A DNA stretch of 28,229 bases, taken from positions 1-28,229 of IMG/VR virus record IMGVR_UViG_3300047409_000224; one strand, 5' to 3'. Origin of the DNA: a virus. A program made the translations under genes and the position numbers. The notes under the pieces are model-generated. The model saw nothing but the letters and a program-made list of their open reading frames with translations. It ran no database searches and was not told the DNA's origin. Shown here piece after piece: positions 1-25,804 of the stretch (the stretch's first letter is position 1; each line of letters starts with the position of its first letter).

Positions 1-3000
1 ATGCTTCGTCTCGAAGGTGTGTGTCGCCTCGTGGAACAGGGTTTCCATCATGCTCGATGCTTGGGCTTCGGGCAGGTCGGTCCGCACCGCGATAGGGTTG
101 AGGAAGAACCCACGGAACGGCACCCTGAGATGAACGCCGTGGTAGCCCGTGTCTTTGCGGTCGTCCTTGACGCCTTTATCGAGAGACACGCCGACGATAT
201 GTCCGGGCTCTCCCCATAGCTCGTAAGCGCGACCCTGGCCCGTATCCACCTTGGCCAGCGCGTCACGGAAATCGAGGACAATCGTTCCGATCCCAGCGAA
301 GAAGCGCCGGGAGTCTGCCTGCGGTATGCCATACCGCTTTTCGGCTTCCACGATCGGATCGAGGTTCAGGTTATTGTGATAGTAGGGCAAGCCCGCGGGC
401 GTGACTTCGACCGGGAAGGCGAAGTTCTTAGGCGAGAGGCGTTCGAGTTCCTTAAGATCTTTCGTAACGTCATGTTCCTCGCCACCAATCAGCGTCTGGC
501 CCTGGCTGATGGTGATGTGGGGCTCGATACTGACCCCCTTCGCGCCTGGGACGTGCCGGCGCAGGTTCAGATCGGCAAACTCAAAATCACGCTTGGGGTT
601 TTCGCCGTCGCGGTAGATGGGCATGGTCTTGGTGTCGACAAACGTCCCGCCAAGCCCGGCCGCGTTTTCTGCGGCGTACTTTTGCTGCAAGAACGCCTGC
701 AATTGGCCAAGGTCTTTTTTGACCTTTTCGGACCAGCCCTCGCGCTGATTGTTGAACGGATAGTAGGCATCCTGCGCCGCAACCTTGGGATGGACATCGA
801 AGATCAATTCATAAGGCAGCATGTCACTGCTGAACGGCCGATCCATGACGCCTGCGTTGAACTGGTAAAGGCCGCTGGATAGGACTTGGTGATTGGGATA
901 GGCCTTCTTGCTCCGCTCCTTGCTCATGTAAACATCGACATCACCCCACGGGAAATGCGCCGTGGTGATCTTTGGCATCCCGGACATATCCTGGTTGCGT
1001 CCGATGGCCACTGTCTGGGTCTTGGTTTCGTCGGCGTGAGTGCCCTTCGTGGTGAAATTCACCTCGACATCGCCAATCAGCGGATGCTGCAAGATATGAA
1101 GGAAGGGCCTGGAGTCGCCCCACCAGCCAAGATCAATCGGCCTCATCGTCTTCGACCATGATTCCATAAGCTGGGCTGGGAAGGTGACCGTCACAATGGT
1201 GCCGTTCGGCTCCGTCGTTGGCTCGGTCTGAAGATTGGCCTTGCCGTCCAGAAGCTCGTTGCCGGAAGTGTCGAGAACGGTCTTCATGCCATCCCGCACG
1301 GTGGCGAGCTGCAGCCGTTCATTGCCAAAGATGAAGGCGAGCTTGGCAACGCCAAAGCCACCGGACCGCTCGGCCTCCGACAGATCGCCCTTGTCGGTTC
1401 CGGCGATGGTCAGGAAGGCATCCTTGACCGTTTGCCGGCTCATACCGATGCCATTATCGGCCACCGTCAAAGTCCGCTTGCCGCGATCCAGCGTCATATC
1501 GATCCTGGCTTCACCCGGCTTGATCAGCCCGGCCTTGGTCGCGGCCTTCACACCATCGAAGCCGTTTTGGAGAAGCTCCTTTCCGGTCACCTGCGGCATG
1601 TCGGAGCCGTACATCTTTTCGCCGTAGAGGCTGATCAAGCCCTTGATGTTGGCACCGATGGCGACCTGTTCGGATTGCCGCGCGGCCGGCTTCTCAGGCC
1701 CACCCTTGCCGAACCAGGGCGAATGCAGCGGTGCGAGATCGCTCCCTGAACGAAGCTGATCGATCACCCGCGCCTTGGTGATGAGGCCCTTCTGATCTTT
1801 CAACCAAGCGCCGAGTCCGGACTCGCGAAAGCCTTCCGCGTTCTTCAGTACGCCAGCCCATTGCGAGCCATGGCCGATTTTCAGCTTGGCATTTGCGACG
1901 GCGCGTTCGAGGCCCGAAAGCTCGGGCTCGATCCGGCTATACATCGCGCCGGTTTCAAAGTTGAGCCTCGTGCCCGGCCGCTTGCCCCCTTCGTCAGGCT
2001 CGGTCGTTTCCCATCCGCCCTTGGGCTTCGGCTTGACCTTCGATGCCGTGACGGGGTTGTTCTGAATGTCCTGTTCGAGCGTATAGACCTTGCCGCGCAA
2101 GTCCTCGATCGCGTCGTCTTCGGTGAAGGGCTTGCCGATCTGCGGCGTGATCGAGGCAATTCGCGCTTCGTTTTGGGCGATACGCTGCTTGGCTGCCTGG
2201 ATGTTGTGCTCAAAACCGCCCACCCGATCCTGCGCCGACATGAAGATGCCAGCCGGCGTATCGGCGCGCAGATACATTTCGCTGTTGCCGGCGCCGTAGA
2301 GCTTGAAGGACAGATTGATTTTTTCCGACCAGTCGCGATCGACATGGAGATCGAAGCCCGCGATCGAGCCGATCTTTTTGACCTGCCCTTTGTGGAGTTC
2401 GCCGGCGGACTTTTTGATCTCTTCAGCCAGCGCGTCGGTCGCGTCCTTGCGGGTGTCGTATCGCTTGCCCGCCACCGTCATGTGGAACTTGTCGCCGCTG
2501 ATGTCGACGCGGCGCTTGATGTTCTCTTCCTGGCGGCCGATGAAGGTCTCATCGCTCGCGATATTGTCGTTCGCCCATTTCAGCGTATGGCGCAGCGCAT
2601 ACTGACTGTTGTCATGGGCGATCTTGCGCCGTTCGACCTTCTCCAATTCCTGCTTCAGATCGGTGAGCTTGACCACCCGCTCGTCCATGGTCGACATGGC
2701 GGCGGCCTGCTCGTAGAGGCTGGCTTCGCCGAGATCTTCCATCTCGCGCAGCGTGGGATCGCCGCGGAAGAACTGTTCGATGAAGCGCCCTTTGCGCCCC
2801 ATCATGTCCCACATCGCCGAATCGTAAGTGCCCTTGGTGGTGTAGTCGTGCGCCTCGATCTCAGGGTTCATGTTGCCCTGGCGCAGAATGCGGCCCATGC
2901 GCTGCTCGTCATCGGCCGGATACCAGAGCGGATCGAGATTGTGGATGGCGTAGAGCCGCTTCTGCACATTGAGCCCGGTGCCCATCATCTTGGTCGAGCC

Positions 3001-6000
3001 GATGAGGAAGCGCACCTTGCCTGAGTTCATGTCGTTGTAGAGCTTCTGGCGCTTGGCGAGGTTCTTGTAGTCGCGGATGAAGGCGATCTCTTCGGGCTTC
3101 ACGCCGCCGGCGATCAGTTGCCGCTTGATCTCGTCATAGACGTTGAAAGAGCGCCCCGGTTTGGAACGCACGCCCAAATTGGCAAAGATGATCTGGGTGG
3201 CCGGGCCTTTCACCGTCTCCTTCTGGTAGTTCGATGCCGGATCGTAGAACTGAACGTCATGGGTGCGCTGATAGATATCGAGCGCATTCTTGAGCATCAG
3301 GTTGAGCTTGCTGTTCTTGGCGTCATTGGCGTCCCCGCCCACCAGCCGCGGATCGATGGCGCCCAAGCGGCCATCGCCGATGACGGACAAGACGATGTCT
3401 TCGCCCTTCTCGGCCGGGCGCTTGCGCTCCTTGATGGCTTGCATGCGCTGATCGAGCCCGGCCTGAAATTCATCCAGGAATTTGGTGCGCGGGGCGACAT
3501 TGAGTTTGCGTTCGCCGCCTTTCAGCTTGGGCCGGACAACGTATTTGCCGAGTTCATTGGAGGTGACGATGTCCATCATCTCGCCGACGATGTGGAACAG
3601 CTCGGGCATGTTGACGAAGCTGGAAAAGCGCGTGACCTGATCGTAGCCGCCGGCAGCAGTTGGTTCGGTCTTCGTCTGGGTGTCACCGAAGGCCGATGCC
3701 CAACTGTCGAAATGGCCGAGCCCGTACTTCTTCAGGGTGGGCCGCTGCAGATAGCGGCTAAGGGTGTAGAGTTCGGCCATGGTGTTGGTGATCGGCGTGC
3801 CAGAAGCCAGCACCACCGAACGGCCGGGCGTCCTGCTTTCGAGATAGTTGATCTTGGAATACAGATCCCATGCCATCTCCGAGCCTTCGGAATCGATGCC
3901 CTTCACCTGCTGGCGCGTGGCGAAGTTCAGCTTCCGGAATTCATGAGCCTCATCGATGAAGAGGAAATCGACGCCCATTTCCTCGAAGGTGTTGGTCATG
4001 TCCTTGCGGCCGCTCATCGCGCCCTTCAAACGCTGGGTGAGCTTTTCCTTCTGGTTCTCGATGCGCTTGATGGTGTGCCGGTCGTCCTGCTTGTCGAGGC
4101 CCTTGAGCGCTTCGTCGAGATTGGCGAGTTCCTCGTTGATGAGGTCTTCTTGGGCCTTCAAACCGAGCGGGATCATGCCGAAGGAAGAATGGGTGATGAT
4201 CACCGCGTCGATATCGTCCTGTGCCACATTGGCCATGAACTGCTTACGCCGGCCAGTATGGAATTGGCGGTCATCGGCGACCATGATCTTGGCGGTCGGG
4301 TATTGCTCATAAAACTCTTTGGCGAACTGGCTGAGCATGTGGTTGGGGACCACATACATCGGCTTCTTCACCAGCCCTAAGCGGCGCATTTCCATGCCGG
4401 CGCCGATCATCTCGGATGTCTTGCCGGCGCCGACCGCGTGCCCGAGATAGGTGTTGCCGGTGAGGATGATGCGGGCGACGCCACGCTGCTGATGCGGACG
4501 CCAGCGCCATTCCGTCGAGACGCCCGGCGTCGTCAGCCAGGAGCCATTGATGAGGCGCAAGACGCGCCGGTTCATTTCGCGGTTGTAGATCCCGGCAAGC
4601 TCATCGCCCTTTTCCCCGGATGCCCAGGCGTAAAAGGCGTTCTTGATCTCGTTGATCTTGTCGGCCGCGGCCTCGGTCTCTGTGACGTTCAACGCGCTCT
4701 TGGGCGTGCCGTCCGGGTCGCGCCAGCGGTCGTAGACCTTGGGCGCCGTCAGGTTCATGGCATTGTTCAAGAGGGTGAAGGCATCCACCCGCGGGGTTGC
4801 CCACCGCGCCTCTCCGATCGCCGTGCCAACATTATCGTCCGTCACCATCCAGCCGCCTGCCGCGGCCGAATGCTTCACCTTGGCAGCCCCGAGATCGAGC
4901 TTGTCCTTGATGAAGGCGGCATACTGCTCTGGCGGTATCCACGGCATGCCGAGCCGCATGCGGATCTGGCCGGGCGCCAGTGGCGGCGGCAGCGCCGCCT
5001 CCAGCGCCGAGGCGTTGCGCTCGTAAGCAGGATCGGACTGAGCCGCGGCTTTGGCGATCGCGAGCTTGTCGGGAATGTCGCCCGACAGATACTCGTCCGA
5101 AGTCTGGTAGGTGTCTTTGGTGCCCGGCAGCTTGAAGACGCTATCGCCCAGATCCTCGATGATCTTGTCCGGATCGACACCCATCTTCTCGGCGATGGCG
5201 GGAAGATCGAACCGCCCGAATTTGTTGAGCGACCACAACACGCCGTCCTGGGCGGATTTCAGATTGGGTTCGAGGGCTTTGCTGATGACCGATTCAAAGA
5301 AGACGCGCTTCTTGCTGCCTTCGCCGGTTTCCGGTTTGTAGTCCTCGATCGCGCGCAGGCGATACGATTCCGGATCGTCCATGAAAGGATCGATGTTGGG
5401 GAGCTTCTCCCGGACATTGTCTTCCATGTCCTCGGGATCGAAGCTGCCTTCGCTATAGCCCTTACGTTCTCGCGCTTCCTGGCGGGCGCGGGCGATCTCG
5501 GCAAGGCTTGCGCCTCTGCGTTCATAGGGCTCGGTGTCGAAGCTGCCATCATCCCAAGGCTCGCCGGCAGCGCGCGCATCCTCGCGGGCCTGGAGCCGTG
5601 CGCCTTCCTGCTGGACGCGGCTGGGGCGCGAATATTGATAGACAGTCTTGTTGATCGGGCCGAATTCGCGGGTGAAGGCGTCGTAGGCTTGGTTGAGCTT
5701 TTTGCGGGCCGCGGCAGCATGCTCGGTATTCTCGGCCAGATCATGCGTGAACACCTGCCGCAGCGCATCGCGGATGGGGATCAGCTTCACCACGCGGTCG
5801 TATTCGGCCTTGGCCATGCCGCTCTGCCCGGCCCCACGCGAGGCAACGGGCGTGCCGACGCCGCTATTGTATTGATAGAGCTTCCCGTCTTTGAGGTAGA
5901 AGCTGCCGTCCTTCTTCTCGGCCGCTTGCAGATCGGCGAGCGCCTTATCCGGATCGTCCCGCGCGGGCGGGTCCATGATGTCTTTGGGCAGCCGATCCAC

Positions 6001-9000
6001 CGCCTCGTTCAGATCGGCGGTCAGATCCTGATCGGGTCTGGCGTGAACCGCGTAGCGGTCCTTGTAGAGCTTGTCGAAGAACCCTTCCTCTCCCAGCACC
6101 ATCTCGGGGTGTTCGGAGAAATAGCGGCTGACGGCGCCCTTCTTGGTATCCCCTTCGGACGTCGGAAGATCGCGCATCACGGTATCGGCCCATGACGCCT
6201 GCGGATCGCCCTTGCCGAACAGCTCGTCGAACTCCTTCGCCGAAAGCGGTTCTTGCCGCTTCTTGAAGAACAGGACGTCCGTCGTCACCTCGGTATTGGC
6301 GTTCTGCGCGAACGCGGTCGAGGGAAGCCGCACGCCACCGATGAACTCCGCGCGCTGTCCGAGATAGGCGCGCGCCTTGGTGTCCAACTTGTTCATGGTG
6401 CCGGCGGAGGTGACGAAGGCGAGAAGCCCACCCGGCCGCACGGAGTCCAATGTCTTGGCGAAAAAGTAGTCATGCAGCGCGAAGCCGCGCGCCTTGTATT
6501 TGGGATCGGCCTTGATGACCGTGTCGGAGAACGGCGGATTGCCGATCGCGAGATCGTAGAAATTCTCCGGCATCGCCGTGTCGATGTAATCGGCCGCGCG
6601 CACCCCCGATTGCGGATAGAGGTGCTTGGCGATCAGCGCGGTCATGGGATCGCGTTCGATGCCGGAATAGCGTGTGGCCGCGGCCAGATCGGGCGGCATG
6701 AGGCCGAGGAAATGGCCGATGCCCATGCCGGGCTCGAACACAGCACCACCCTTGAAGCCCATGGCCTGCACGGCGCCCCACATCGCATTGATGACGTTCT
6801 CGGCTGTGTAATGGGCGTATTGCGTCGAGGTGGAGGCCTGCTTGTATTCGTCGTCGGTCAGAAGCGCCTTGAGGCGTTCCCCGATATCGGCCAAGCCCGT
6901 GCCGTACTTGCCGGTGACAGGGTTCGGGAACGCGCCGGAGAGCCCGCCCCAGCCAACATATTTGGCGAGTTTAGCCTGCTCATCAGCGGTGGCCAGACGG
7001 CCTTCTTTCTCGATCGTCTTGGCGAGTTCGATGGCCGCGATATTGTCGAGGGCCTTGGTCTTGCGCGTGCGTTCTTCGGCCAGAGCGCCCGGCGCGATAT
7101 GGAAATTCTTCCCCTCTACTCCTCCGGGACTTGTGGGGGATTCGTGCTTGGGGCGCTCGGGCCCGGCGGGAGGTCGAGCATTTGTCCCATCACTCTTTCC
7201 TCCGCCAGTCTTAGCGCCTGGACGTCCTTTGGTAGGCCGTCCACCCCCTTGGGCTCCTTCGCCAGTATCTGATCCAGGAGCACCCTCGCCTCCTGGCATT
7301 TCTCCTTCAGGAGGTCGTTGATCTTCCCCGTCCTCACGAGGTCCCGGAACCCCTTCGGGTCGCTTTTCGCCAGCGCCTGTTGGTACGCCAGGGGGAACGC
7401 TTCCAGTGTCATTTTTGGCCCGCTCTATTTCCGCATCGATCTCGGCAAGCCCGGCCTTCACGGCCGCGGCGTCGTCCATGCCGGAGACGTCAAGCCCGGA
7501 GTCTTCCATAACGTCTCGCGCGTGGTTGTACCACCCTCGCAAATGCGGACGAAGCTGCTTCAGACTGATGCCGAATTTGCCAAGATGGGCAGACATCGCC
7601 TGTACCCAATCGGCGAATTTCCTGGCCCCGGCCTCGATATGGAAGGCGGCCAGTTTGGACGCGATGGGCAATATCTTGGGATCGAGCCCGGCCGACATCT
7701 GGCCCTTGAGCAAGGCGGCCAGTTCGGCGGCCAGATCATCGGCTTCCTTCTGAGTGACGCCCGTGTTCTTGGCACCCCATTCTGCTGGCAGTTCCGGGGG
7801 CTTGGGCGGCTTGACGGGTTCGGGTGCCTTCGGTGGCGCTTGTGGCGCGGACGGACTTGTCCCCTTTTGTCCGCTCTTGCCGCTTGACTTTGGCGCAAGG
7901 AACGCGGTCGCCGCAGCGTGCCCAGCCTTGTATTCAGGGCCCGTCTGCATCCCTTCCGTCTCGCGCGGCTTGCCCGCCTTGGCATCCGCCCAGCCGGCGA
8001 CAAATTGCGCCGAGGCTAGACCGGCCCTCGGGGCATTCTTGCCGAACTTGTCATGGAAGGCCGCAATGGCTGCGTCCTGTTCTTCGTCGGCCAGCGAGGC
8101 GAAATTGGTGTGCCGGTTGCGGTTTTTGTCTGGTTCGGCCGGCTTTGGCGCAGCCGGGGCCTTGCCTCCGATGATGTGCTTCTCGCTCGGGCCGTCATCG
8201 CCGAACAGGATGTCATTCAGCAGATCGCGGTCGGACGGGCTGAGGTTCGTCGCGTTCATGCCCTGGACGAGCGTCTTGTTATAATTGTCGCCGGTGGCTT
8301 CCTTCCTCGCTTCGTCCAAGATCCACGCATCGTACCGGCTGAGTGACATCTTCCGTTTGCGATTGGTGGAAGCATCCATCTTCGGCACCGGCGCCAGCTC
8401 GCGGCCACTGTCGCTGCGGAAGCGGACGCCGCTGTTGATCAACGGGCTGACGTAGATGTCCTGACCGGACAGCGGGCCTGGGGTGGGCTTTGCGGCCGGC
8501 GCTTCGGGCGGGGCCGCCTCATGGCGATCACGCTCGGCGTTGTAGGCTTTGTCGAATTCAGCCTGCGCCGCTTTCCATGCGGTCCGCGCCTTCAAAAACT
8601 CATCGTCACCGATCTTTTTTGCCCGGTAATCCGCCACTGCTATCTGATAGGCACGACCGGCCGCGTTGCTTTTCTCGATCGCGGCTTGGTACTCCGGCGA
8701 TAGTGCAGGCCCTGGCTTGGGCGCCGTTGGCTTCTCGGCCTCCGGCATTGCCAGCGCCTTCTTGAGATCGCCGCTTTCCGCCCAGCCCTTGAACTCGGAG
8801 ATGTGCATTTCGGAGATGCCGCCGAGACGCGATGATCCGCTCTTGTCGGAGAAGCTCGCCTTGTAGGCGTCGATCGCATCGTCTTCGCTGTCGAAGCCGA
8901 GCATCGCCTTGTGCTCGTCGAATTTGCCCGTCTTCGGATCGATCTGATCGATGACATAGACCGTCTTCGCCTTCGGGTTCTCGCCGATATAGACGTCGAG

Positions 9001-12000
9001 CGGATCGCCATCGGCGCCTTTGGTGCGCGGGATTTCGCCGTAATGGGCCGGGGCTTCTGCTTCCCATTTCTCGCCTGTCGACGAGACACCCTTGCGCATC
9101 TCGCCCTTGGGCGTCGTGATCTTGATGGGAATATCCTGGAACGTGGCGGGGGCGGGCGTGGGCTTCGTCTGTGAAAGCCGTTCATCAATTTGCTTCTTGG
9201 CCCGTTCCACTTCCTCAACTGACTTGCGGGCCGGTCCCAGCGCCTGCTCGGTAAGATCCTCCTTCATGCGCTGGATGTCGCCGAAACCCTTGCCGGTGCG
9301 CTTCTGGATCTCGTCGGTGGGAAGATCGAGAATTTCCTGATCGGTTAAACCACCCCATTCGGGACGCGCCGGCGCTTCTTCCTCCGCGCCCGGCAGTTCG
9401 TAGTCCGAGCCTTCCGCTTCCGGCGTCTCGACAGTGATGGTCTTGGTCGGCGTCTCAACGGTGCGCTGCCCAGGCGGCGCCTCTGCGGCTGCCCCTGCGG
9501 ACGGCATAGGCTCCCGCATAGGCGGCGGCGCGGCCGGGCCTTCGCCTTCTTCGACGGTGACGGTCTTGTTCGGTGTCTCAACGGTACGGCGCGGCTTGAA
9601 CGTCTCTTTTGTCAGCATCGCCGGCGTTTTCATTTCAAGCGGCGGCGGCTCGGCAAACGTCCTGCCCGCATTCGGCACCGGACCGGTAGCGCCGGGTACG
9701 CCTTCGAGGAAATTGGCGAGCGCCTGAGCGCGTTGATCTTGCGGGGACAGCCTGCGGCCGGCGCCACGACGGCCCAAGGCCAAGGCTGCAACCTCGGCGA
9801 TCGCACCCGCCCCGCCACCGCCCAGCGCATTGAGGCCGACCTGATCGAGCAGATCCTGTTTCGGGTTGTAGATGCCTTTGGCCACCAAGTTCTGCATCCA
9901 TTGCTGGATGCCTTCCTGGCCGCCTTCGGCAAAAGCCTGCATGCCGATCTTGCCCACGACCTTGATCGCGGTGCCGAGCAAACCGGGCGGGACTTTGATG
10001 AGGCCAACGCCAGGAACGGGGATATGGCCGAGCAGCATCTCGATCGGCAGGCTGTCGGTCAGGCCGGGAATGCCGCCGATCGCAGCGGCTTGCATGATCT
10101 GGCCTTCGGTTGCGCCATGCTCGACGGCGTCCTGCACCTGCTGGCCAGCCTGCGAGAAGTAAAAGAAGGATGGCGCCAATTCAGGAGCTACGAGTGAAAT
10201 CCCGACGCCGGCGCCCATGGAGCCGAGGGCTTCGCCGATGACGCGGCCGGGGGATTGTTCATAGCCCGGCCTCGCCTTGAACCACGGGGCGTTCTCGATC
10301 GCCTGTTGAAGCTCGCCGGCCTTCTTGTAGATCGGGTTGTCCGAGGTCTTCTGCACCCGGAAGGGAACGCCGCGGATGGCACTCGCGGGTTGCGCGATCG
10401 CCTCGGCCGGCGACATGCCCTTGTCCAAGTTCTGAAAGATATTCTGGATGGCGGTGTTCTGATCGGAGGGCAGTTCCTTCTGCGCCTTCTGTCTCCAGGC
10501 GTTGCGCTGGATCGCCGGCATCTTGCCCCAGCCGGTGAGGGCCTTCTGATATTCGGGCGGCAGGTACGCGCCTTCTTCCGTGAAGGGCACAAGGCCCTGC
10601 ACCGTGCTGCTGACCATTCCCGTAAAGCCGGGAACGACTCCCCTTAGCTCAAGAACATTGCGGCCCACCTCCCGATACGGGTGGGCCCGCTTCACCGCGT
10701 CCGAGGCGGCCGCGAGTTTCGCCTGATCCGACAGCGGCAGGGCGCGCGCCGCTTCCGTCGAGAGGATCGGCAAGTCTTCGCCGCGCTGGGTGCGCGCTTC
10801 TTTCTCCGTGTACGCCTGGATCTCGGCGTCGGCGGGCCGCGGCTCCAGCGCATAGGGCGGCTTGATCTGATCGCGGATCGCCTGCTGCTGTTCGGCCAGA
10901 TCCTGAAATGTCTTCAGCTTGTCGGCCACCGGTGCGACCAGCGCCTGCCGCTGGGCGAGAAGCGCGTTGTACTGATCGCGCTTGGCGTTATGGACCTGCA
11001 ACGCGGCATCGGCCTGCAGCTTCAGCGGCGCCAATTCCTTTTGCAGCGGAACGAGCTTTGCCTGCGCCGCATCGGTCAGCGCCTGATGCTGGGCGAGCAG
11101 ACCGTTGTATTCGGCGACATGGGTGTTGAACACCTCGTAGTCGGCCGCGGACCACAGCTTTTGCGTCCCCTGCATCGCCTTCATCTCGGCGTTGAGCGCA
11201 TTGATCTTCGCCGCGGTGTCGGCAAGCTTCTGCTGCTGCTCGGCAAAGATGGCGTTGTAGTGTTCGACCTTGGCGCTGTAGGCGGTGTTGGCCGCTTCGG
11301 CATTCGCCCGTAGCGGTGTCAATTGCGCACCGGCCGCCATCAGGGGCTGATCGAGAGTTTCGAGCTGCTTCAGCACCGGCGCGACTTGCGGATAGATCGT
11401 CTCCAACTGCGCGCGCCCGGCCTTGGCCTGCTCTTGAAGGGCGACCATCTCGGCCGGCTTCAGCGGCCGCTGCTTCGGCGTGGGCACGGTATGAGCCTGC
11501 ATGAAGGCTTGGCCGGCCTCGTCCGAATCGAAGGCACCGTAATATTTGCCGGTCTTCCTGAAGCGTTCGACCGCATCGCCGAGAAAGCCCGTGTCGTCAT
11601 TGGCGGGCCTGTCGCCCTTTTCGGTCGGCAGGACGTAGTGCTTCGGGATGCCTTCCTCCGACACCTCGAACGTCGCCCACTTATCCCCCGCCCGGCCGGG
11701 ATCGAGATTGCCTTCATGGCCCGGCAGCATGCCGTTATCGAGCACGCCTTTGGATAATGAAGGGGCTTCGCTATCCGGCGGTGGAGCCGTCTCCTCCGGT
11801 GCTGCCTGCTCGGGCGGTGCTTCAGCCGCTGGCGCTGCTGGTTCAAGATCATCGGGCGGAAGAAGATCATCGGGCGGAACGAGTTGACCAGCCTTGCGCA
11901 GCCTCGCCCTTTCGCGAGGGCCCGGCAGACCGCCTAGAACGAACTGAACATTGCCGACATAATCTTTGACCGTCTCGGGCAGCCGCTTGATGAAATCGCG

Positions 12001-12393
12001 TTCCGAGATTTTCCCCTTGCGCGGGTCGCCATAGGCCGCAAGCGCCATATTGAGATTGCCTGGACCCCAATTATAGGCCGCCGCGGCAAGCGCCGGAGAC
12101 CCATATTCCCGCTGCAGCGCGCGCCAATAATCCACCCCGACGCGGTTGTATTCCGCGATGGACTGATCTCTCGCGGGCTCTACCTCATATCCAGGACGTG
12201 CCGCAGTTGCTGGGCGCACCTGCATCCGCCCGCGCGCCCCGGCTGAAGAAACGACGTCATCGGGCGTGTTTTCCGCATACTCGATTTCCGGTGCGGAATA
12301 TTGACCTGCCACGTCCGGTGGCGGCTGTGCCGGCGCTACCGGTTCAAGATCATCGGGTGGGAGAAGATCATCGGGCGGAACGAGTTCGTCCAT
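1..12393 (-). CDS. Giant polyvalent ejection protein, DarB-like (3' end beyond window)
   Basis: One frame is open from ATG 12393 to base 1: I checked every triplet and found no stop in 4131 codons, so the C-terminus lies outside the window. The start follows an AGGAA ribosome site by about 9 nt and lies one codon after the stop of the upstream gene. Domains in order: lytic-transglycosylase-like module (about 20-170), small virion domain (228-301), coiled coil (305-520), hydrophobic region (712-880), InPase-like domain (1087-1214), conserved helical domain (1538-1630), N6-adenine methyltransferase (1770-2045), SNF2-like helicase (2620-3210), a helical QW...LK domain around residue 3512, GHKL ATPase (3590-3760) and HExxH (4121-4125). 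T7 gp16 also starts with a transglycosylase and is ejected. Phage P1 DarB pairs methylase and helicase to block host restriction from inside the virion. I infer an injected, multi-function anti-defence protein. The domain assignments are by eye; continuity of the ORF is seen directly. Confidence 0.9.
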   Translation of the reverse strand, partial: MDELVPPDDLLPPDDLEPVAPAQPPPDVAGQYSAPEIEYAENTPDDVVSSAGARGRMQVRPATAARPGYEVEPARDQSIAEYNRVGVDYWRALQREYGSPALAAAAYNWGPGNLNMALAAYGDPRKGKISERDFIKRLPETVKDYVGNVQFVLGGLPGPRERARLRKAGQLVPPDDLLPPDDLEPAAPAAEAPPEQAAPEETAPPPDSEAPSLSKGVLDNGMLPGHEGNLDPGRAGDKWATFEVSEEGIPKHYVLPTEKGDRPANDDTGFLGDAVERFRKTGKYYGAFDSDEAGQAFMQAHTVPTPKQRPLKPAEMVALQEQAKAGRAQLETIYPQVAPVLKQLETLDQPLMAAGAQLTPLRANAEAANTAYSAKVEHYNAIFAEQQQKLADTAAKINALNAEMKAMQGTQKLWSAADYEVFNTHVAEYNGLLAQHQALTDAAQAKLVPLQKELAPLKLQADAALQVHNAKRDQYNALLAQRQALVAPVADKLKTFQDLAEQQQAIRDQIKPPYALEPRPADAEIQAYTEKEARTQRGEDLPILSTEAARALPLSDQAKLAAASDAVKRAHPYREVGRNVLELRGVVPGFTGMVSSTVQGLVPFTEEGAYLPPEYQKALTGWGKMPAIQRNAWRQKAQKELPSDQNTAIQNIFQNLDKGMSPAEAIAQPASAIRGVPFRVQKTSDNPIYKKAGELQQAIENAPWFKARPGYEQSPGRVIGEALGSMGAGVGISLVAPELAPSFFYFSQAGQQVQDAVEHGATEGQIMQAAAIGGIPGLTDSLPIEMLLGHIPVPGVGLIKVPPGLLGTAIKVVGKIGMQAFAEGGQEGIQQWMQNLVAKGIYNPKQDLLDQVGLNALGGGGAGAIAEVAALALGRRGAGRRLSPQDQRAQALANFLEGVPGATGPVPNAGRTFAEPPPLEMKTPAMLTKETFKPRRTVETPNKTVTVEEGEGPAAPPPMREPMPSAGAAAEAPPGQRTVETPTKTITVETPEAEGSDYELPGAEEEAPARPEWGGLTDQEILDLPTDEIQKRTGKGFGDIQRMKEDLTEQALGPARKSVEEVERAKKQIDERLSQTKPTPAPATFQDIPIKITTPKGEMRKGVSSTGEKWEAEAPAHYGEIPRTKGADGDPLDVYIGENPKAKTVYVIDQIDPKTGKFDEHKAMLGFDSEDDAIDAYKASFSDKSGSSRLGGISEMHISEFKGWAESGDLKKALAMPEAEKPTAPKPGPALSPEYQAAIEKSNAAGRAYQIAVADYRAKKIGDDEFLKARTAWKAAQAEFDKAYNAERDRHEAAPPEAPAAKPTPGPLSGQDIYVSPLINSGVRFRSDSGRELAPVPKMDASTNRKRKMSLSRYDAWILDEARKEATGDNYNKTLVQGMNATNLSPSDRDLLNDILFGDDGPSEKHIIGGKAPAAPKPAEPDKNRNRHTNFASLADEEQDAAIAAFHDKFGKNAPRAGLASAQFVAGWADAKAGKPRETEGMQTGPEYKAGHAAATAFLAPKSSGKSGQKGTSPSAPQAPPKAPEPVKPPKPPELPAEWGAKNTGVTQKEADDLAAELAALLKGQMSAGLDPKILPIASKLAAFHIEAGARKFADWVQAMSAHLGKFGISLKQLRPHLRGWYNHARDVMEDSGLDVSGMDDAAAVKAGLAEIDAEIERAKNDTGSVPPGVPTGAGEKRPEGVPGPREDGEDQRPPEGEMPGGEGAPGSDTGEGAQGGGRPTKGRPGAKTGGGKSDGTNARPPAGPERPKHESPTSPGGVEGKNFHIAPGALAEERTRKTKALDNIAAIELAKTIEKEGRLATADEQAKLAKYVGWGGLSGAFPNPVTGKYGTGLADIGERLKALLTDDEYKQASTSTQYAHYTAENVINAMWGAVQAMGFKGGAVFEPGMGIGHFLGLMPPDLAAATRYSGIERDPMTALIAKHLYPQSGVRAADYIDTAMPENFYDLAIGNPPFSDTVIKADPKYKARGFALHDYFFAKTLDSVRPGGLLAFVTSAGTMNKLDTKARAYLGQRAEFIGGVRLPSTAFAQNANTEVTTDVLFFKKRQEPLSAKEFDELFGKGDPQASWADTVMRDLPTSEGDTKKGAVSRYFSEHPEMVLGEEGFFDKLYKDRYAVHARPDQDLTADLNEAVDRLPKDIMDPPARDDPDKALADLQAAEKKDGSFYLKDGKLYQYNSGVGTPVASRGAGQSGMAKAEYDRVVKLIPIRDALRQVFTHDLAENTEHAAAARKKLNQAYDAFTREFGPINKTVYQYSRPSRVQQEGARLQAREDARAAGEPWDDGSFDTEPYERRGASLAEIARARQEARERKGYSEGSFDPEDMEDNVREKLPNIDPFMDDPESYRLRAIEDYKPETGEGSKKRVFFESVISKALEPNLKSAQDGVLWSLNKFGRFDLPAIAEKMGVDPDKIIEDLGDSVFKLPGTKDTYQTSDEYLSGDIPDKLAIAKAAAQSDPAYERNASALEAALPPPLAPGQIRMRLGMPWIPPEQYAAFIKDKLDLGAAKVKHSAAAGGWMVTDDNVGTAIGEARWATPRVDAFTLLNNAMNLTAPKVYDRWRDPDGTPKSALNVTETEAAADKINEIKNAFYAWASGEKGDELAGIYNREMNRRVLRLINGSWLTTPGVSTEWRWRPHQQRGVARIILTGNTYLGHAVGAGKTSEMIGAGMEMRRLGLVKKPMYVVPNHMLSQFAKEFYEQYPTAKIMVADDRQFHTGRRKQFMANVAQDDIDAVIITHSSFGMIPLGLKAQEDLINEELANLDEALKGLDKQDDRHTIKRIENQKEKLTQRLKGAMSGRKDMTNTFEEMGVDFLFIDEAHEFRKLNFATRQQVKGIDSEGSEMAWDLYSKINYLESRTPGRSVVLASGTPITNTMAELYTLSRYLQRPTLKKYGLGHFDSWASAFGDTQTKTEPTAAGGYDQVTRFSSFVNMPELFHIVGEMMDIVTSNELGKYVVRPKLKGGERKLNVAPRTKFLDEFQAGLDQRMQAIKERKRPAEKGEDIVLSVIGDGRLGAIDPRLVGGDANDAKNSKLNLMLKNALDIYQRTHDVQFYDPASNYQKETVKGPATQIIFANLGVRSKPGRSFNVYDEIKRQLIAGGVKPEEIAFIRDYKNLAKRQKLYNDMNSGKVRFLIGSTKMMGTGLNVQKRLYAIHNLDPLWYPADDEQRMGRILRQGNMNPEIEAHDYTTKGTYDSAMWDMMGRKGRFIEQFFRGDPTLREMEDLGEASLYEQAAAMSTMDERVVKLTDLKQELEKVERRKIAHDNSQYALRHTLKWANDNIASDETFIGRQEENIKRRVDISGDKFHMTVAGKRYDTRKDATDALAEEIKKSAGELHKGQVKKIGSIAGFDLHVDRDWSEKINLSFKLYGAGNSEMYLRADTPAGIFMSAQDRVGGFEHNIQAAKQRIAQNEARIASITPQIGKPFTEDDAIEDLRGKVYTLEQDIQNNPVTASKVKPKPKGGWETTEPDEGGKRPGTRLNFETGAMYSRIEPELSGLERAVANAKLKIGHGSQWAGVLKNAEGFRESGLGAWLKDQKGLITKARVIDQLRSGSDLAPLHSPWFGKGGPEKPAARQSEQVAIGANIKGLISLYGEKMYGSDMPQVTGKELLQNGFDGVKAATKAGLIKPGEARIDMTLDRGKRTLTVADNGIGMSRQTVKDAFLTIAGTDKGDLSEAERSGGFGVAKLAFIFGNERLQLATVRDGMKTVLDTSGNELLDGKANLQTEPTTEPNGTIVTVTFPAQLMESWSKTMRPIDLGWWGDSRPFLHILQHPLIGDVEVNFTTKGTHADETKTQTVAIGRNQDMSGMPKITTAHFPWGDVDVYMSKERSKKAYPNHQVLSSGLYQFNAGVMDRPFSSDMLPYELIFDVHPKVAAQDAYYPFNNQREGWSEKVKKDLGQLQAFLQQKYAAENAAGLGGTFVDTKTMPIYRDGENPKRDFEFADLNLRRHVPGAKGVSIEPHITISQGQTLIGGEEHDVTKDLKELERLSPKNFAFPVEVTPAGLPYYHNNLNLDPIVEAEKRYGIPQADSRRFFAGIGTIVLDFRDALAKVDTGQGRAYELWGEPGHIVGVSLDKGVKDDRKDTGYHGVHLRVPFRGFFLNPIAVRTDLPEAQASSMMETLFHEATHTFETKH
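19..33 (-). other. HExxH zinc-metallopeptidase motif of the giant protein
   Basis: Residues 4121-4125 of the giant ORF read H-E-A-T-H, preceded by Met-Glu-Thr-Leu-Phe and followed by Thr-Phe-Glu. A hydrophobic residue before HExxH is typical of zincin active-site helices, with the two His binding zinc and the Glu activating water. The third zinc ligand would lie beyond base 1, so it cannot be checked here. Metallopeptidase domains are known in phage polyvalent proteins, where they may mature the polyprotein or cut host targets. The short motif alone is weak evidence; the domain context raises it. Confidence 0.5.
1114..1626 (-). other. GHKL (Hsp90/MutL-type) ATPase domain of the giant protein
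   Basis: Residues about 3590-3760 carry the Bergerat-fold motifs in order and at normal spacing. The N-box is ELLQNGFD (E3606, N3610, D3613). Motif G1 is DNGIGM (D3646 to M3651). The G2 lid motif is SGGFGVAKLA, starting at Gly3678-Gly. The catalytic Glu of Hsp90-type ATPases corresponds to E3606 and is present. The downstream segment has alternating beta-strand character, like the transducer domain of this superfamily. The function in an injected phage protein is unknown to me. ATP-driven clamping on DNA or chaperoning of the unfolded polyprotein are both possible. Confidence 0.85.
2764..4536 (-). other. SNF2-like superfamily 2 helicase/translocase domain of the giant protein
   Basis: Residues about 2620-3210. 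A Q-motif-like stretch WRPHQQRGV is followed by the Walker A loop HAVGAGKT (K2658, T2659), Walker B/motif II DEAH (D2814-H2817) and motif III-like SGTPITNT. The second RecA lobe has GTGLNVQ and motif VI QRMGRILRQG (Q3164-R3171). This is the arrangement found in DarB-like methylase-helicase fusions of phages and integrative elements. It is expected to move on DNA using ATP next to the methyltransferase. The region that follows (about 3260-3430), with an FDLHV...EKINLSF core, matches the extension that usually follows such helicases. Confidence 0.92.
6259..7086 (-). other. DNA N6-adenine methyltransferase domain of the giant protein
   Basis: Residues about 1770-2045. The motifs appear in the order of a class I amino-methyltransferase: STQYAHYT (H1861, motif X), VFEPGMGIG (from V1885, the AdoMet-binding motif I), GIERD (motif II acidic residue) and GNPPF (N1952-F1955, motif IV, the N6-adenine catalytic signature). 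Further on comes RPGGLLAFVTS, typical of the post-catalytic strands. The preceding segment with KYVGWGGL is also typical of this family. The domain probably methylates adenines in the incoming phage DNA, or mimics such an enzyme, to defeat restriction. The target sequence cannot be predicted. Confidence 0.93.
7116..7412 (-). CDS. Nested ORF overprinted on the giant gene, 98 aa, function unknown
   Basis: This ATG-to-TAG reading frame lies wholly inside the giant gene but in another frame, with an in-frame TAG at 7425-7427 just upstream. By hand count 79 of 98 codons end in G or C in this frame, against about 38 of 98 in the giant frame over the same bases; elsewhere the giant frame has the strong bias. 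The product looks like a real protein: about 80 residues of amphipathic helix (MTLEAFPLAYQQ start, charged and Leu-rich) and a Pro-rich tail ending PPQVPEE. In the giant frame the same DNA is Gly/Pro/Glu low-complexity linker. Codons such as AGG, GGG and CTC are commoner here than in neighbouring genes, suggesting imported DNA. The ribosome site is poor (GAGCGG, about 9 nt upstream). Expression is unproven. Confidence 0.5.
   Translation of the reverse strand: MTLEAFPLAYQQALAKSDPKGFRDLVRTGKINDLLKEKCQEARVLLDQILAKEPKGVDGLPKDVQALRLAEERVMGQMLDLPPGPSAPSTNPPQVPEE
7504..7782 (-). other. Conserved helical domain preceding the methyltransferase in DarB-like proteins
   Basis: Residues about 1538-1630 begin EWGAKNTGVTQKEAD and contain AGLDPKILP, AFHIEAGARKFADW and RGWYNHARDVM. 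I recognise this arrangement from many phage and plasmid methylase-helicase polyvalent proteins, where it sits just before the methyltransferase. Its biochemical role is not known to me. It supports assigning the giant gene to that family and shows that the upstream linker is in the correct frame up to about base 7440. Confidence 0.6.
8752..9135 (-). other. InPase-like (inorganic pyrophosphatase-like) domain of the giant protein
   Basis: Residues about 1087-1214 contain PRTKGADGDPLDVYIG, VYVIDQIDPKTG, DEHKAMLGF and later SEFKGWAESGDLKKAL. The D-G-D-P-L-D cluster recalls the metal-binding acidic residues of soluble pyrophosphatases. The overall string matches the domain described in phage polyvalent and MuF-type proteins. 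What it does after injection is unknown; hydrolysis of pyrophosphate or a nucleotide-related substrate is possible. The family assignment is from memory and was not checked by search. Confidence 0.7.
9754..10260 (-). other. Hydrophobic Gly/Ala-rich ejection region of the giant protein
   Basis: Residues about 712-880 include ALGSMGAGVGISLVAPE, a polar stretch (SQAGQQVQDAVEHGA), AAAIGGIPGLTDSLP and further Gly/Ala/Val-rich helices (HIPVPGVG, LNALGGGGAGAIAEVAAL). Such segments are common in very large phage internal virion proteins and fit insertion into, or passage through, the cell membrane during DNA ejection. The location in the membrane is inferred from composition only. Confidence 0.5.
10834..11481 (-). 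other. Coiled-coil segment of the giant protein
   Basis: Residues about 305-520 are rich in Ala, Gln, Leu, Lys and Glu. They contain a loosely repeated motif, HYNAIFAEQQQKL, EYNGLLAQHQAL and QYNALLAQRQAL, about 45-50 residues apart. The pattern predicts long helices or a coiled coil, perhaps a multimerisation rod for the ejection protein in the capsid. Confidence 0.6.
11491..11712 (-). other. Small phage virion-associated domain of the giant protein
   Basis: Residues about 228-301 run from GNLDPGRAGDKWATFEV to FRKTGKYYGAFDSDEA and end QAFMQAH. Similar short domains, with a GN(I/L)D start and a TGK(H/Y)xGxFDSxEAA...H end, occur beside lysozyme-like domains in many phage internal proteins. I know no proven function. 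Its presence supports a virion role for the N-terminal quarter of the giant protein. Confidence 0.45.
11840..11885. repeat. Direct repeat, left copy, flanking the transglycosylase-like module
   Basis: This 46-bp stretch matches 12341-12386 at 44 of 46 bases. On the minus strand it encodes a PPDDLLPPDDLEP segment (residues about 172-185 of the giant protein). Each copy is itself a tandem of two PPDDL units. The two 46-bp copies start exactly 501 bp apart, which is 167 codons. Confidence 0.95.
11884..12336 (-). other. Lytic-transglycosylase-like (SLT) module of the giant protein, N-terminally short
   Basis: Residues about 20-170. Recognisable SLT elements are SSAGARGRMQVRPATA (residues 49-64, the GxMQ signature), AAYNWGPGN (about 105-113) and LPETVKDYV (138-146). 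This fold cleaves peptidoglycan and, in phages, opens a path for DNA. The usual N-terminal helix that carries the catalytic ES motif is missing. The best candidate for the catalytic acid is E41 in YAENTPDDVV, followed by Asn rather than Ser and one residue nearer the GxMQ motif than usual. The fold assignment is strong; catalytic activity is uncertain. Confidence 0.85.
12341..12386. repeat. Direct repeat, right copy, at the start of the giant gene
   Basis: Partner of 11840-11885 with two mismatches in 46 bp. It begins within codon 3 of the giant gene and encodes residues about 4-18 (LVPPDDLLPPDDLEP). Recombination between the copies would delete 501 bp and keep the reading frame. Confidence 0.95.
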
Positions 12394-12396
12394 GGC

Positions 12397-15300
12397 TCAT
12401 GTTCCTGTCCGCCACTGGCCATTCTCTTGCCACCACCATTTGCCCTGCGATGGGCTCCATCTCGCGCCCGCCGGCACGGTGGCAGGACGCAGCGGTTTAG
12501 CCTTGGTCTCGACAGGCGCCTGCGCAGCCGCGGGCGTGCCGGGCTTGCGCACGAGGTTGTTGCCGGGCAGGCCTTTCTGGGACGACGACGACTGCCGCGT
12601 CTTGCGCTCTGTCTGTTCCAACTGCTTCCAGCCGTCCTTGATCTCCTTGATCCGGGCATCGACATCTTCTTTTGAATCGTAGAGACCGCGCACATTTTCG
12701 GAATTGACGATTTTGCGCGCCTCGATGTCTTTTTCCACTTCGGTCGGCGGGATCTTTGAACTGGCAAAACGCGCCGCCTTATCGTCGGCGTCGGGATCGC
12801 CCGCATAGAGTTGCAGGCCGATCTTGTATTTCTCGTCGAAGACCGAACGCTCACCGCTCTTGGTCTCGTCTGGCTGCATACCGCGCGCTATGTCGCGCAA
12901 GGCCTTTATGGGCTTGCCGTCCGGACCGATGACATTTTCCAGCGGGCGGTCTGCTTGCTCCCTGGCCTCTCTGTCCCGCGCGATCTCAAGCTGCTTTTCC
13001 TCATAGGCCGTCAGCTTCTTCGGTGCGGCACCGGCTTCGGCCGCTAATTCGCCTTCCTTCTCGGCCTGCTTTCTCTCCTTCATCTTCGCCGGGTCGTGTT
13101 CGATATCCCAATGCTTCTGGTCCTCAAGTGCCTTATCCGTCAAAGCCTTGAGCCGCTTCGCGTTGAGATCGGCGTTCGAGCGCAGGATGGAGAGCCGGGC
13201 CGCAGCGCTCTCGCGCTTCTCTTTTTCGGCTCGCAGATCCTTGATCTCGGAGAGGGCCATCTTTCCGCCGGTGCCGATATTGACCAGCGGATAGGGTGAC
13301 GTGCCCGACATGGTGCCGAGCCCGGCCGCGAGCAGCGCCATCCATGGGCTGCTTGCTGCTTTATCCAGCCAATTGCCTTTGGCCGCTTCCGCCCCAGCCC
13401 CGCTTGCCGCATCGCCGACTTGGCTTGCCCCGGCGGTCAATTGATCGAAATCCGGCATCTGCCCGGCGGCACCGAGGCCGGCGTTCGCCTGCATGGGCAG
13501 CGTGTCGTCATTGGCCGGGAGGCTTGGAATACCCGGCGTCGGCTTGACATTGACGACACCGGGTTGTGCCGGATCGGCCGGGCCAGTTGGCGTATAGGCC
13601 GGCGGCACATCGGGCGTCGACGGGAGCGACAGCCCGCCGAAAGCATCCGGGTTGGCACTGTCCAGCGCCGTCTTGTCGTCGATGTCCTGTTGGTTTGCGA
13701 CGATGCTATCGCGTATCCGCTGTAAGAAGTCGTCGGACGAGTCGAGTCCTGGCGCTCCAAACACCTCGCCGCCATCCGCGTAAAGACGGCCACCCCTCGA
13801 CAGGATTCCGTGCAGCAAGAAATTATGTTTGATCGGGTCTTCGATCTTATTGTAGGCGATGTCTTGTGCCTGCTGCGCCTGCTCCGGTGTCGGGTCTGCA
13901 CCGCCGGTGATCTGATTGATGGCGTCCTGTGTGGCCTGCGTGACCATGTCCAAGGTGGGTGGCCCGTAATACGGCTCGCCCGGCGACCAGTTGGACGCCT
14001 TCTCTGTCGGCAGCGCGGCAAGGTTGTCGGGAACGAAGGCCCCGCCGAGCGCGCTTGAGGGCCAATTGAAGTTCAGCACCGGGCCGTTTGCGACCGTGGC
14101 AGCCGGAACGGTACTCCAGTCGGTGGGTGGCGCAATCGCGGCCATGCCCCTTTGCATCGCATCTGCCGAAAGTGGTCCCAGGCCGCCTTGCTGCCCGACG
14201 AAATTTGGCGCTGCCACCGATCCCGGCGTGCCTGACGTCACCGGAATGGCCGGCGTAAAATGGGGCGCGTCGGTTGGGGCCGCCGGATGATCGGTGGTGG
14301 ACCGCAGCACATTTTCGGGCGTGATCACACCGCCAGGGCTGAACACCGGCCCGCCGGCATCGAGGCCGACCCGCCCGCCGCGCTTGACCAGTTTGGCCAA
14401 CGCCAAGCCGGTCATGCCGAGGCCGCCCAATTGCGAGAGCAGCGAGGGCGCTGGAGCGGTCTGGCTGGAGGTGCCGCCCATGCCCTGACCGAGATTGCCG
14501 GTGATGCCGGCAAGGAAGCTTGTCGTGGTGAACGGCCATTGCTGTGCCGCCATGTAATTCGCGTTCTGGACGTTGTTCCATTCCTGCTGAAGCTGCTGCT
14601 GCAAGCCGCCCGACTGCAATTGCGCACTCGCCTGCGACAGCCAGGATTGTGGAATGTTCATGCCGAGGTTGCTGTAGAGATCGCCGGCGCCGAGCCCGAG
14701 CTGACCGGATTGCGCCGCGGCCTGCATCGCGAGCTGCGCGTTCTGGCCGAACATGCCCTGCGCAGCTTGTGCGCGGGCCATCGCCATCTGGTCCTGGTTC
14801 TGCGATCCGCTCATGCCGAGCTGCAGCGCTTGCAGCGCTTGCTGAGCTTGGTTGATACCGACACCCTGTTGGCCGAGCGAAAGCTGACCGCTCGTGCCCA
14901 TGAGGCCGAGGCCGTAATTCTCCTGCCCGAGCCCGAGTTGGCCGGACGTGCCCATGCGCGAAATGTCCGCCTGCTGCTGGCCAAGGCCGAGTTGTCCACT
15001 CGTCCCCATGCGAGAGATGTCGGCTTGTTGCTGCCCGAGTCCGAGCTGGCCGCTCGCCGACATGCGCGAAATGTCGGCCTGCTGTTGGCCAAGGCCCAAT
15101 TGACCAAGCGCCTGCAACTGCTGAAGGCTCAAGCCCGCCTTCGCGAGACCGGTTTGCTGCTGCTGATTGGCTTCGCTTAAGGCCTGCCCGTAGCCCGATT
15201 GATAAAGATTGGCGATGACCGGGTCTTGCGCGAGATGCTGCTGGTTGGCGAGTTCGGCTTGCGCGACACCGGCACGATCGCCGCCCCAGGCGCCGGCCGA

Positions 15301-16056: not shown

Positions 16057-16536
16057 CTAAACCTCCGGACGATAGAGGAAGGCGCCGCCCGCAAGCGGCA
16101 GACGGCGGCTGTAAAGCCGAAGCTTGGCTTCGACGCGGTCCGTCGCCATGACGCCCATCAACAACGGGATCGGCCGCCCCATTTCGCGCGACATCTCATC
16201 GGCAGCGTTGGTCGCAAATTTCCACAAGGCATCGAAGCATTCGCCATCGCGATACGCATGCCGCACATACACCCAGCGATCGCGCAACAGCGTGGCGCCC
16301 GGATCTGTGGGATCGGAATACCACCAGCTATCGAAGACGAGACCCACGGTGCCGGCGATCTCGTTATCGCCATCGACCACGCCGATGATGGCGCCGCGCG
16401 CTCGCGTGCCTTCGCGGATGGCCCGCTTGACCAAGCCTGCCGAGAGGGGACCGATGCCGTTCTCGGCATGGTTCTGTGTCAGGATGTCGAGCAGCGCATC
16501 CTCGTCGGAAGGCAGGGCGAGCCGCGCTTCAGGCAT
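16057..16536 (-). CDS. GNAT-like N-acetyltransferase, 159 aa (second of a pair)
   Basis: I place the start at ATG 16536 (MPEARLALPSDED) because GAGG lies 6 nt upstream; a GTG at 16548 would add four residues. The ATG overlaps the end of the previous gene by 8 nt, which suggests coupled translation. The order of elements fits a GNAT fold: an N-terminal acidic helix (DEDALLDILTQ), central strands with GTVGLVFDSWWY, and the acetyl-CoA-loop region near VYVRHAYRDGECFDALWKF. The classic Q/RxxGxG/A loop is not clean. Phages often carry such genes near tail and ejection genes; the target is unknown. Confidence 0.65.
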   Translation of the reverse strand: MPEARLALPSDEDALLDILTQNHAENGIGPLSAGLVKRAIREGTRARGAIIGVVDGDNEIAGTVGLVFDSWWYSDPTDPGATLLRDRWVYVRHAYRDGECFDALWKFATNAADEMSREMGRPIPLLMGVMATDRVEAKLRLYSRRLPLAGGAFLYRPEV

Positions 16537-17005
16537 AGCCAGCCTCACGCTCTACGAAGATGGGCTCGTGCTGGAACACGAGGCCGACGCGGCTCAATTG
16601 ACGCGCCAGCACGAAATCGATCTGCGGCTGTGTCTCTGCGCTTTCGGCCTGCAGCATGATGAGACGCAAGCCCATCTGGTTCGACACGCCTTTGGCGAAC
16701 GCGATCAGGTTCTTCAGATGGCTGGACTTGCGATGTTCGGGATGCACGAAGGTCCAGAGATCTTCGAGATGATGATCGGACGTATCCCAGAAGCGCGCGA
16801 CCGTAAGCCCGACGCTGGCGACGACCGGATCTCCGTCGCGGATGATGCCGACGATGCCGACGCCCTTGGGATGCGTCATCTCGATCAGCTTGGCGCGGGC
16901 GAGAAGCATATCGAAGCGGCCGACCGTGCGTGACATTTCGCGGTGGCGGAGTTCGATCAGGGGCAGGATCGCATCGATGTCCGCGGCCGTGGCTTTCGCG
17001 ATCAT
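16529..17005 (-). CDS. GNAT-like N-acetyltransferase, 158 aa (first of a pair)
   Basis: It starts at ATG 17005, overlapping the upstream stop by 4 nt (ATGA). The N-terminus (MIAKATAADIDAILPLIE) is the usual first strand and helix of GNAT enzymes. A strand pair GIVGIIRDGDPVVASVGL and the segment DLWTFVHPEHRKSSHLKNLIAFAK correspond to strand 4 and the acetyl-CoA pyrophosphate loop with its following helix. The C-terminal GLVFQHEPIFV resembles the last GNAT strand. It shares a plan with the next gene, so the two may be an old duplication. The substrate cannot be read from the sequence. Confidence 0.72.
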   Translation of the reverse strand: MIAKATAADIDAILPLIELRHREMSRTVGRFDMLLARAKLIEMTHPKGVGIVGIIRDGDPVVASVGLTVARFWDTSDHHLEDLWTFVHPEHRKSSHLKNLIAFAKGVSNQMGLRLIMLQAESAETQPQIDFVLARQLSRVGLVFQHEPIFVEREAGYA

Positions 17006-25745: not shown

Positions 25746-25804
25746 GAACACCGGCCCGGTGTTCAAGTGCTGCGATAGCGCGTGCGATTTGAGATTTTTG
25801 TCAA
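25746..25804 (-). promoter_or_regulatory. Candidate promoter box and operator-like dyad ahead of the head genes
   Basis: The gap 25682-25800 is the only one over 100 nt. On the minus strand TTGACA occurs at 25804-25799, overlapping the fibre stop codon. About 35 nt on lies a perfect 9-bp inverted repeat with a one-base centre (GAACACCGG, C, CCGGTGTTC) at 25746-25764. No good -10 box is at the right distance (best guess CGCTAT near 25775-25780), so the promoter call is weak. The dyad could be an operator or a 5' hairpin in the head mRNA. It lacks the T-run of an intrinsic terminator. Confidence 0.35.

What the first reader, a model, noticed from the sequence alone, without database searches (positions are those of the whole stretch)
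1..12393. A >4100-residue ejection protein joining transglycosylase, methylase, helicase, GHKL ATPase and peptidase
A single stop-free frame links a T7 gp16-like N-terminus (SLT module, coiled coil, hydrophobic region) to an InPase-like domain, a DarB-like methyltransferase-helicase, an Hsp90-type ATPase and an HExxH motif. Polyvalent proteins with several of these parts are known, but this order, with the cell-entry domains and anti-defence enzymes in one chain, looks like a self-contained entry and protection machine. That it is injected is inferred from the N-terminus, the position after internal virion genes and the DarB precedent.
Basis: partly seen in the sequence, partly recalled or inferred. 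Interest (0 to 1): 0.85.

Follow-up and report, generated by a model that had tools for sequence, protein, structure and literature searches.

The report
Giant phage protein with added Hsp90-protease module
A phage gene encodes a single protein of more than 4,131 amino acids that joins a cell-wall enzyme and a known anti-restriction (DarB-type) engine to an Hsp90-like ATPase plus a metal-dependent protease; the giant DarB protein is a known type, but the Hsp90-protease unit, found in about 80 uncultured-virus and genome records, is not described in any source I could search.

Summary
One stop-free frame of 4,131 codons lies on the MINUS strand (12393 to 1) and runs off base 1, where the record ends. 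Domains in order: N-terminal repeat, SLT transglycosylase, helical and weakly hydrophobic stretch, InPase, DarB-type methylase-SNF2 helicase, Hsp90-like ATPase, HExxHxxxxxH zincin. The core is known: Bcep22-like phages carry 4,500-4,700-aa SLT-methylase-helicase proteins, and JC1 gp69 was found in virions by mass spectrometry. The C-terminus is unusual. The Hsp90-zincin module has intact catalytic motifs and folds like Hsp90/GyrB (Z about 20) plus a Wss1-like protease (Z 8.6, borderline). It occurs in 77 IMG/VR loci but in none of 50,697 phage records, and no other DarB protein sampled carries it. The module and the SLT both match the same contig best (L007), while the middle matches DarB phages; this argues for gene shuffling rather than a two-piece assembly error. 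Most likely it is a virion-packaged, injected polyvalent protein: SLT helps entry, DarB blocks restriction, the Hsp90-zincin unit processes the chain or removes host proteins. Injection, protease and chaperone activity are inferred. New variant of a known kind.

The parts
1..12393 (-). Giant ORF, at least 4,131 aa, 3' end beyond the window
12340..12387 (-). N-terminal short repeat ELVPPDDLLPPDDLEP (aa 3-18); candidate capsid-targeting signal (inferred)
   Evidence: repeat test z=5.3; P1 DarB precedent
11947..12312 (-). SLT lytic transglycosylase domain, aa 28-149; candidate catalytic Glu E36 (E38 and E41 nearby)
   Evidence: Pfam E=2.4e-6, match starts at profile position 30 so the Glu helix is not covered; alignment; 52% identity to L007 over 104 aa
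11839..11883 (-). Second copy of the repeat, LVPPDDLLPPDDLEP, aa 171-185, so the SLT is bracketed by two copies
   Evidence: sequence
10804..11466 (-). A/E/Q-rich, probably helical stretch, aa 310-530
   Evidence: composition; no homologue among the giants
9694..10296 (-). Gly/Ala-rich weakly hydrophobic region, aa 700-900, shared with L025
   Evidence: KD peaks 1.55 and 1.41
8779..9144 (-). InPase domain, aa 1084-1205
   Evidence: PF18823 E=1.9e-39; also in L014, L015, L017, L025, L030
6004..7056 (-). N6-adenine methylase region, aa 1780-2130 (GWGG motif of LPD36 type at about 1814, NPPF at 1952)
2584..5106 (-). SWI2/SNF2-type helicase/translocase, aa 2430-3270
2029..2562 (-). Post-helicase region of the DarB family, aa 3278-3455
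436..1656 (-). Hsp90-like ATPase plus middle/transducer domain, aa 3580-3986; E3606, N3610, D3613, D3646, G3650, R3884
1..396 (-). Zincin, about aa 4000-4131 (cut by window end), HEATHTFETKH; Wss1-like by fold of the L007 homologue
12397..16053 (-). 1,218-aa protein directly upstream; its L025 homologue weakly matches 'DNA ejection protein'
17838..19853 (-). Virion structural protein (phrog_3287), part of the block syntenic with L014 and L025

Best explanation
A DarB-type polyvalent protein of a tailed, probably podovirus-like phage, made in the late virion operon, packaged in the capsid and sent into the cell with the DNA. Proposed order of action: (1) an N-terminal signal recruits it to the prohead; (2) the SLT domain helps cross peptidoglycan; (3) the methylase-SNF2 translocase acts on incoming DNA and blocks type I-like restriction, as P1 DarB does; (4) InPase hydrolyses pyrophosphate or a nucleotide; (5) the Hsp90-like ATPase and the zincin work as one ATP-driven protease unit that releases or refolds the domains of the chain or degrades host proteins. 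In this lineage the usual DarB C-terminus was replaced by an Hsp90-zincin cassette from another family of giant phage proteins. Shown: frame, domains, motifs, homology, cassette exchange pattern. Supported by published homologues: virion packaging, anti-restriction (P1 DarB). Inferred: ejection of this protein, order of action, step 5.
For: Frame and domains. Homologues with the same SLT-MTase-helicase order downstream of virion genes. JC1 gp69 in virions with 51 peptides. P1 DarB packaging signal and anti-restriction. Upstream genes syntenic with DarB loci L014 and L025. Hsp90 identity by sequence and fold. Invariant Bergerat residues, R330 and HExxH in 61 aligned modules. Module and SLT both closest to L007, middle closest to DarB loci. 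Codon usage of the C-terminal module matches the rest (cosine 0.986).
Against: No experiment on this phage. The C-terminal end is missing, so further domains are unknown. The combination is seen in one contig only. The SLT Pfam match omits the helix with the catalytic Glu. TM segments are weak. GHKL fold alone does not prove chaperone function, since GyrB and TopoVI-B score as high as Hsp90.
Confidence: 0.72

Rival explanations
1. The Hsp90-zincin end is a RIIA-like or independent counter-defence effector, not a processing unit: the ATPase disarms a host defence and the protease cuts host proteins.
For: T4 RIIA joins a GHKL ATPase to a variable C-terminus and is discussed as counter-defence (PMC7824862); RIIA proteins are prominent structural matches in BFVD and a weak sequence match (phrog_38678 E=0.0019). 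The zincin model is closest to Wss1, a DNA-protein crosslink protease.
Against: RIIA matches are not better than Hsp90 in sequence; the module is always embedded in a giant chain among the loci seen, which suits processing as well.
Confidence: 0.35
2. The Hsp90-like ATPase mainly refolds the giant chain after it is threaded unfolded through the tail.
For: A giant ejected protein has to pass a narrow channel (N4 vRNAP, PMC12633501); Hsp90-type ATPase with R330 in an N-x-[S/Q]-R-E loop.
Against: No evidence of chaperone activity; most DarB giants manage without it.
Confidence: 0.2
3. Assembly chimera: the C-terminal 560 aa come from another virus.
For: Single contig; in the sample the two families are otherwise mutually exclusive.
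Against: In frame and same strand; codon usage uniform; the SLT at the opposite end is also closest to L007, which a single join cannot explain.
Confidence: 0.1
4. The protein stays in the virion or acts during assembly and is not injected.
For: N4 vRNAP-type and DdrB-type proteins can be processed in the head (discussed in PMC5512222).
Against: Methylase, helicase, InPase and ATPase need nucleotides or SAM in the cytoplasm; P1 DarB is believed to enter the cell.
Confidence: 0.1

Closest known systems
DarB-like giant of Bcep22-like phages (BcepIL02 gp70, DC1 gp67, JC1 gp69, CSP3 orf43; phrog_10089)
   Same: N-terminal SLT, methylase-SNF2 helicase dyad at about 42% identity, one chain over 4,500 aa, downstream of virion structural genes, HExxH after the helicase
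   Different: No InPase or Hsp90-like domain in BcepIL02; C-terminal LPD3/LPD38; their HExxH lacks a His at +6
P1 DarB
   Same: Methylase-helicase anti-restriction dyad, N-terminal targeting region
   Different: About 250 kDa; the SLT, InPase and Hsp90-zincin features were not compared directly here
Giant protein of IMG/VR contig L007 (3,005 aa)
   Same: Closest SLT (52%) and Hsp90-zincin module (50%)
   Different: Has ddrB-ParB and ART in place of InPase and methylase-helicase; no DarB anywhere on its 66-kb contig
Polyvalent proteins (Iyer et al. 2017, PMC5512222)
   Same: Lysozyme, InPase, LPD36-MTase-SNF2, metallopeptidase in one phage protein
   Different: Their text does not contain GHKL, Hsp90, gyrase or histidine kinase; their MPTases use Glu as third ligand and are unrelated to known clades, here HExxHxxxxxH and Wss1-like
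T4 RIIA
   Same: GHKL/Hsp90-like ATPase with variable C-terminus in a phage
   Different: Stand-alone protein, no zincin reported, weak sequence match only
HtpG/Hsp90
   Same: N-terminal ATPase and middle-type domain; Arg in an N-x-[S/Q]-R-E loop
   Different: C-terminal dimerisation domain replaced by a zincin domain

Membership tests
DarB-like giant (phrog_10089) | Methylase-SF2 helicase dyad with NPP[FY], Walker A, DEAH and motif VI | tested here: met
DarB-like giant (phrog_10089) | N-terminal SLT domain upstream of the dyad (Bcep22-like subgroup) | tested here: met
DarB-like giant (phrog_10089) | Encoded at the end of the virion gene block | tested here: met
DarB-like giant (phrog_10089) | Present in the virion and blocks restriction | not testable with these tools
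   published for JC1 gp69 (virion) and P1 DarB (restriction) only
Polyvalent protein | Several unrelated enzymatic domains of the phage type in one chain, with MPTase | tested here: met
Hsp90 family | Bergerat motifs and best sequence match to Hsp90 over other GHKL proteins | tested here: met
Hsp90 family | Middle-type domain with catalytic Arg | tested here: met
   R330 of the module invariant in 61 sequences; fold Z 20.4, but GyrB 20.2 and TopoVI-B 19.9 are tied
Hsp90 family | C-terminal dimerisation domain | tested here: not met
   followed by a zincin domain instead; so Hsp90-like, not an Hsp90 orthologue
Wss1/SprT-type metalloprotease (WLM) | HExxH with third His | tested here: met
   HExxHxxxxxH in the window and in 63 of 75 modules with HExxH
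Wss1/SprT-type metalloprotease (WLM) | Wss1 fold | tested here: inconclusive
   VIA Z 8.6, 110 aligned, rmsd 3.1, top four rows all Wss1, but Foldseek E only 0.53 and Pfam WLM E=0.0011 in L007, below its cut-off; window domain itself is cut
T7 gp16 ejection protein | Sequence or structural homology beyond a generic SLT domain | tested here: inconclusive
   no solved structure hit by aa 1-900

The most novel reading that the evidence does not exclude
The Hsp90-like ATPase and the Wss1-like zincin form a so far undescribed chaperone-protease machine, carried by many uncultured phages in injected giant proteins, that strips or degrades host defence proteins bound to incoming DNA, here coupled directly to the DarB translocase.
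Probability: 0.2. Interest if true: 0.85.

Novelty: new variant of a known kind. Interest (0 to 1): 0.6.

Why it matters
It shows that C-terminal cassettes are exchanged between two otherwise separate families of giant phage proteins, and it exposes an Hsp90-zincin dyad present in about 80 environmental virus or genome records and missing from 50,697 phage records. If the dyad is an injected chaperone-protease, it would be a new type of phage counter-defence or self-processing device, testable with simple ATPase and cleavage assays.

Tried and rejected
Readthrough fusion with the upstream gene: the 1,218-aa ORF is in the same frame, separated by one TGA, but in L014 and L025 the two genes overlap in different frames, so this looks like coincidence. 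Missing SLT catalytic residue: the Pfam match starts after it, but an alignment places E36 at the expected position. Near-identical contigs spanning the junction: none; an N-terminal viral scan found no relative and the C-terminal and core scans gave 50% and about 55-60% best. DNA matches in phages: none; in plasmids one 37-base methylase match; protein search of plasmids only general Hsp90-like ATPases. PDB sequence search with aa 1-900: nothing. Paper searches for Hsp90/GHKL in phage polyvalent proteins gave no description, but subscription papers and preprints are largely not held, and Gill et al. on Bcep22/BcepIL02 was not available.

Full report
Observation. The minus strand holds one open frame from ATG 12393 to base 1, 4,131 codons with no stop. 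The window is the whole IMG/VR record, 28,229 bases and classed linear, so the sequence left of base 1 cannot be recovered here. A chance frame of this length is not credible, and it translates into known families along most of its length.

Anatomy. aa 3-18 carry a doubled motif ELVPPDDLLPPDDLEP that recurs at 171-185 and brackets an SLT domain. aa 310-530 are probably helical; aa 700-900 are Gly/Ala-rich and weakly hydrophobic. aa 1084-1205 are an InPase (E=1.9e-39). aa 1673-3454 match the DarB-like phrog_10089 at E=0, with a GWGG motif like that of LPD36, NPPF, Walker A, DEAH and motif VI all intact. aa 3580-3986 are an Hsp90-like ATPase with its middle-type domain; aa 4000-4131 begin a zincin whose HExxHxxxxxH ends on the last codon of the window.

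Known relatives. tblastn of the dyad finds 112 phage records, 47 covering at least 80%. The best are Lessievirus phages, whose proteins of 4,500-4,700 aa lie after virion genes and before lysis genes. BcepIL02 and PEp14 giants have SLT, methylase and helicase plus LPD domains. JC1 gp69 was identified in purified virions with 51 unique peptides (PMC9144972). CSP3 orf43 was described as SLT, helicase and methylase (PMC10269572). P1 DarB is directed to the capsid by its N-terminal 30 residues and belongs to a six-protein anti-restriction system (PMC9024508). InPase, lysozyme, methylase-helicase and metallopeptidase were all listed as polyvalent-protein domains by Iyer et al. (PMC5512222).

The unusual part. 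A search with aa 3550-4131 found five viral loci; a profile from them found 77 viral loci and 3 bacterial or archaeal assembly loci. A 61-sequence alignment has invariant E52, N56, D59, D92, G96, M97, K130, R330 and H567, with E568 and H571 at 90% or more. A profile of the first five modules hits HtpG at E=9e-11. The AlphaFold2 model has mean pLDDT 85.5 and pTM 0.83; it matches Hsp90 (Z 20.4, 307 residues, rmsd 4.0), GyrB (20.2) and topoisomerase VI-B (19.9), which are tied, so sequence and not fold points to Hsp90. The R330 loop reads YPFNNQRE or YPFENSRE in many members, which resembles the catalytic-Arg loop of the Hsp90 middle domain (from general knowledge). The zincin, modelled from L007, is closest to Wss1 (Z 8.6, 110 residues), but Foldseek gives only E=0.53, so this is a lead.

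Distribution. No member appears among 50,697 phage records: the window module hit only two short Listeria-labelled contigs over 120 residues and the L045 module hit none. None of the 80 module-bearing loci encodes the DarB methylase or helicase nearby. Over whole records, 0 of 38 module-bearing records have the DarB core and 0 of 18 DarB records have the module, while the window and the L014 and L025 controls are found as expected. Many of these records are fragments, so the exclusion is a tendency.

Chimera test. Codon usage of the C-terminal module matches the rest (cosine 0.986) and GC is 0.584 against 0.617. The SLT at the N-terminus (52%) and the module at the C-terminus (50%) are both closest to L007, while methylase and helicase are closest to DarB loci at 56-62%. 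The six genes upstream that gave matches are syntenic with DarB loci L014 and L025. A single misjoin cannot give this pattern; recombination of gene segments can. It rests on one contig.

Function. Packaging is inferred from close homologues; anti-restriction from P1 DarB. For the Hsp90-zincin dyad three roles remain: processing or refolding the chain after ejection, RIIA-like counter-defence, or removal of proteins from DNA suggested by the Wss1 likeness. None is tested.

Side result. In 39 of 72 non-redundant giants of both families the first 100 residues contain an internal repeat at z>3, against 3 of 72 for residues 600-700 of the same proteins. The motif differs between lineages. Because the P1 DarB N-terminus is a capsid-targeting sequence, these repeats are candidate packaging signals. 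The z-scores come from 60 shuffles each and low-complexity stretches contribute to some.

Noticed in passing
aa 3-18 and 171-185 of the giant; L012-L105 giants: Lineage-specific short N-terminal repeats (for example NFFDQFD, RDLFAEL, FSFEEA, NPQTGEYVFLVDNQW) in 39 of 72 giants against 3 of 72 internal controls; candidate capsid-targeting signals.
   Followed up: partly
16057-16548 and 16529-17005: Two adjacent overlapping ORFs both match the same single acetyltransferase-like ORF in L014 and L025, suggesting a tandem duplication of a GNAT-like gene.
   Followed up: partly
12393-12397: The upstream 1,218-aa ORF and the giant are in the same frame, separated by one TGA; not conserved in L014 and L025, so probably coincidence.
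   Followed up: yes
L058 1346-13582: A 4,079-aa giant joining InPase, LPD5, LPD1, MutS-I, RadC and the Hsp90-like module.
   Followed up: no
L007 1223-10237: A 3,005-aa giant with SLT, ddrB-ParB, ART, two HExxH sites and the Hsp90-like module.
   Followed up: partly
25801-26772 and 26667-28229: Two tail-fibre-like ORFs overlap by about 100 bases; the second runs off the record end.
   Followed up: no
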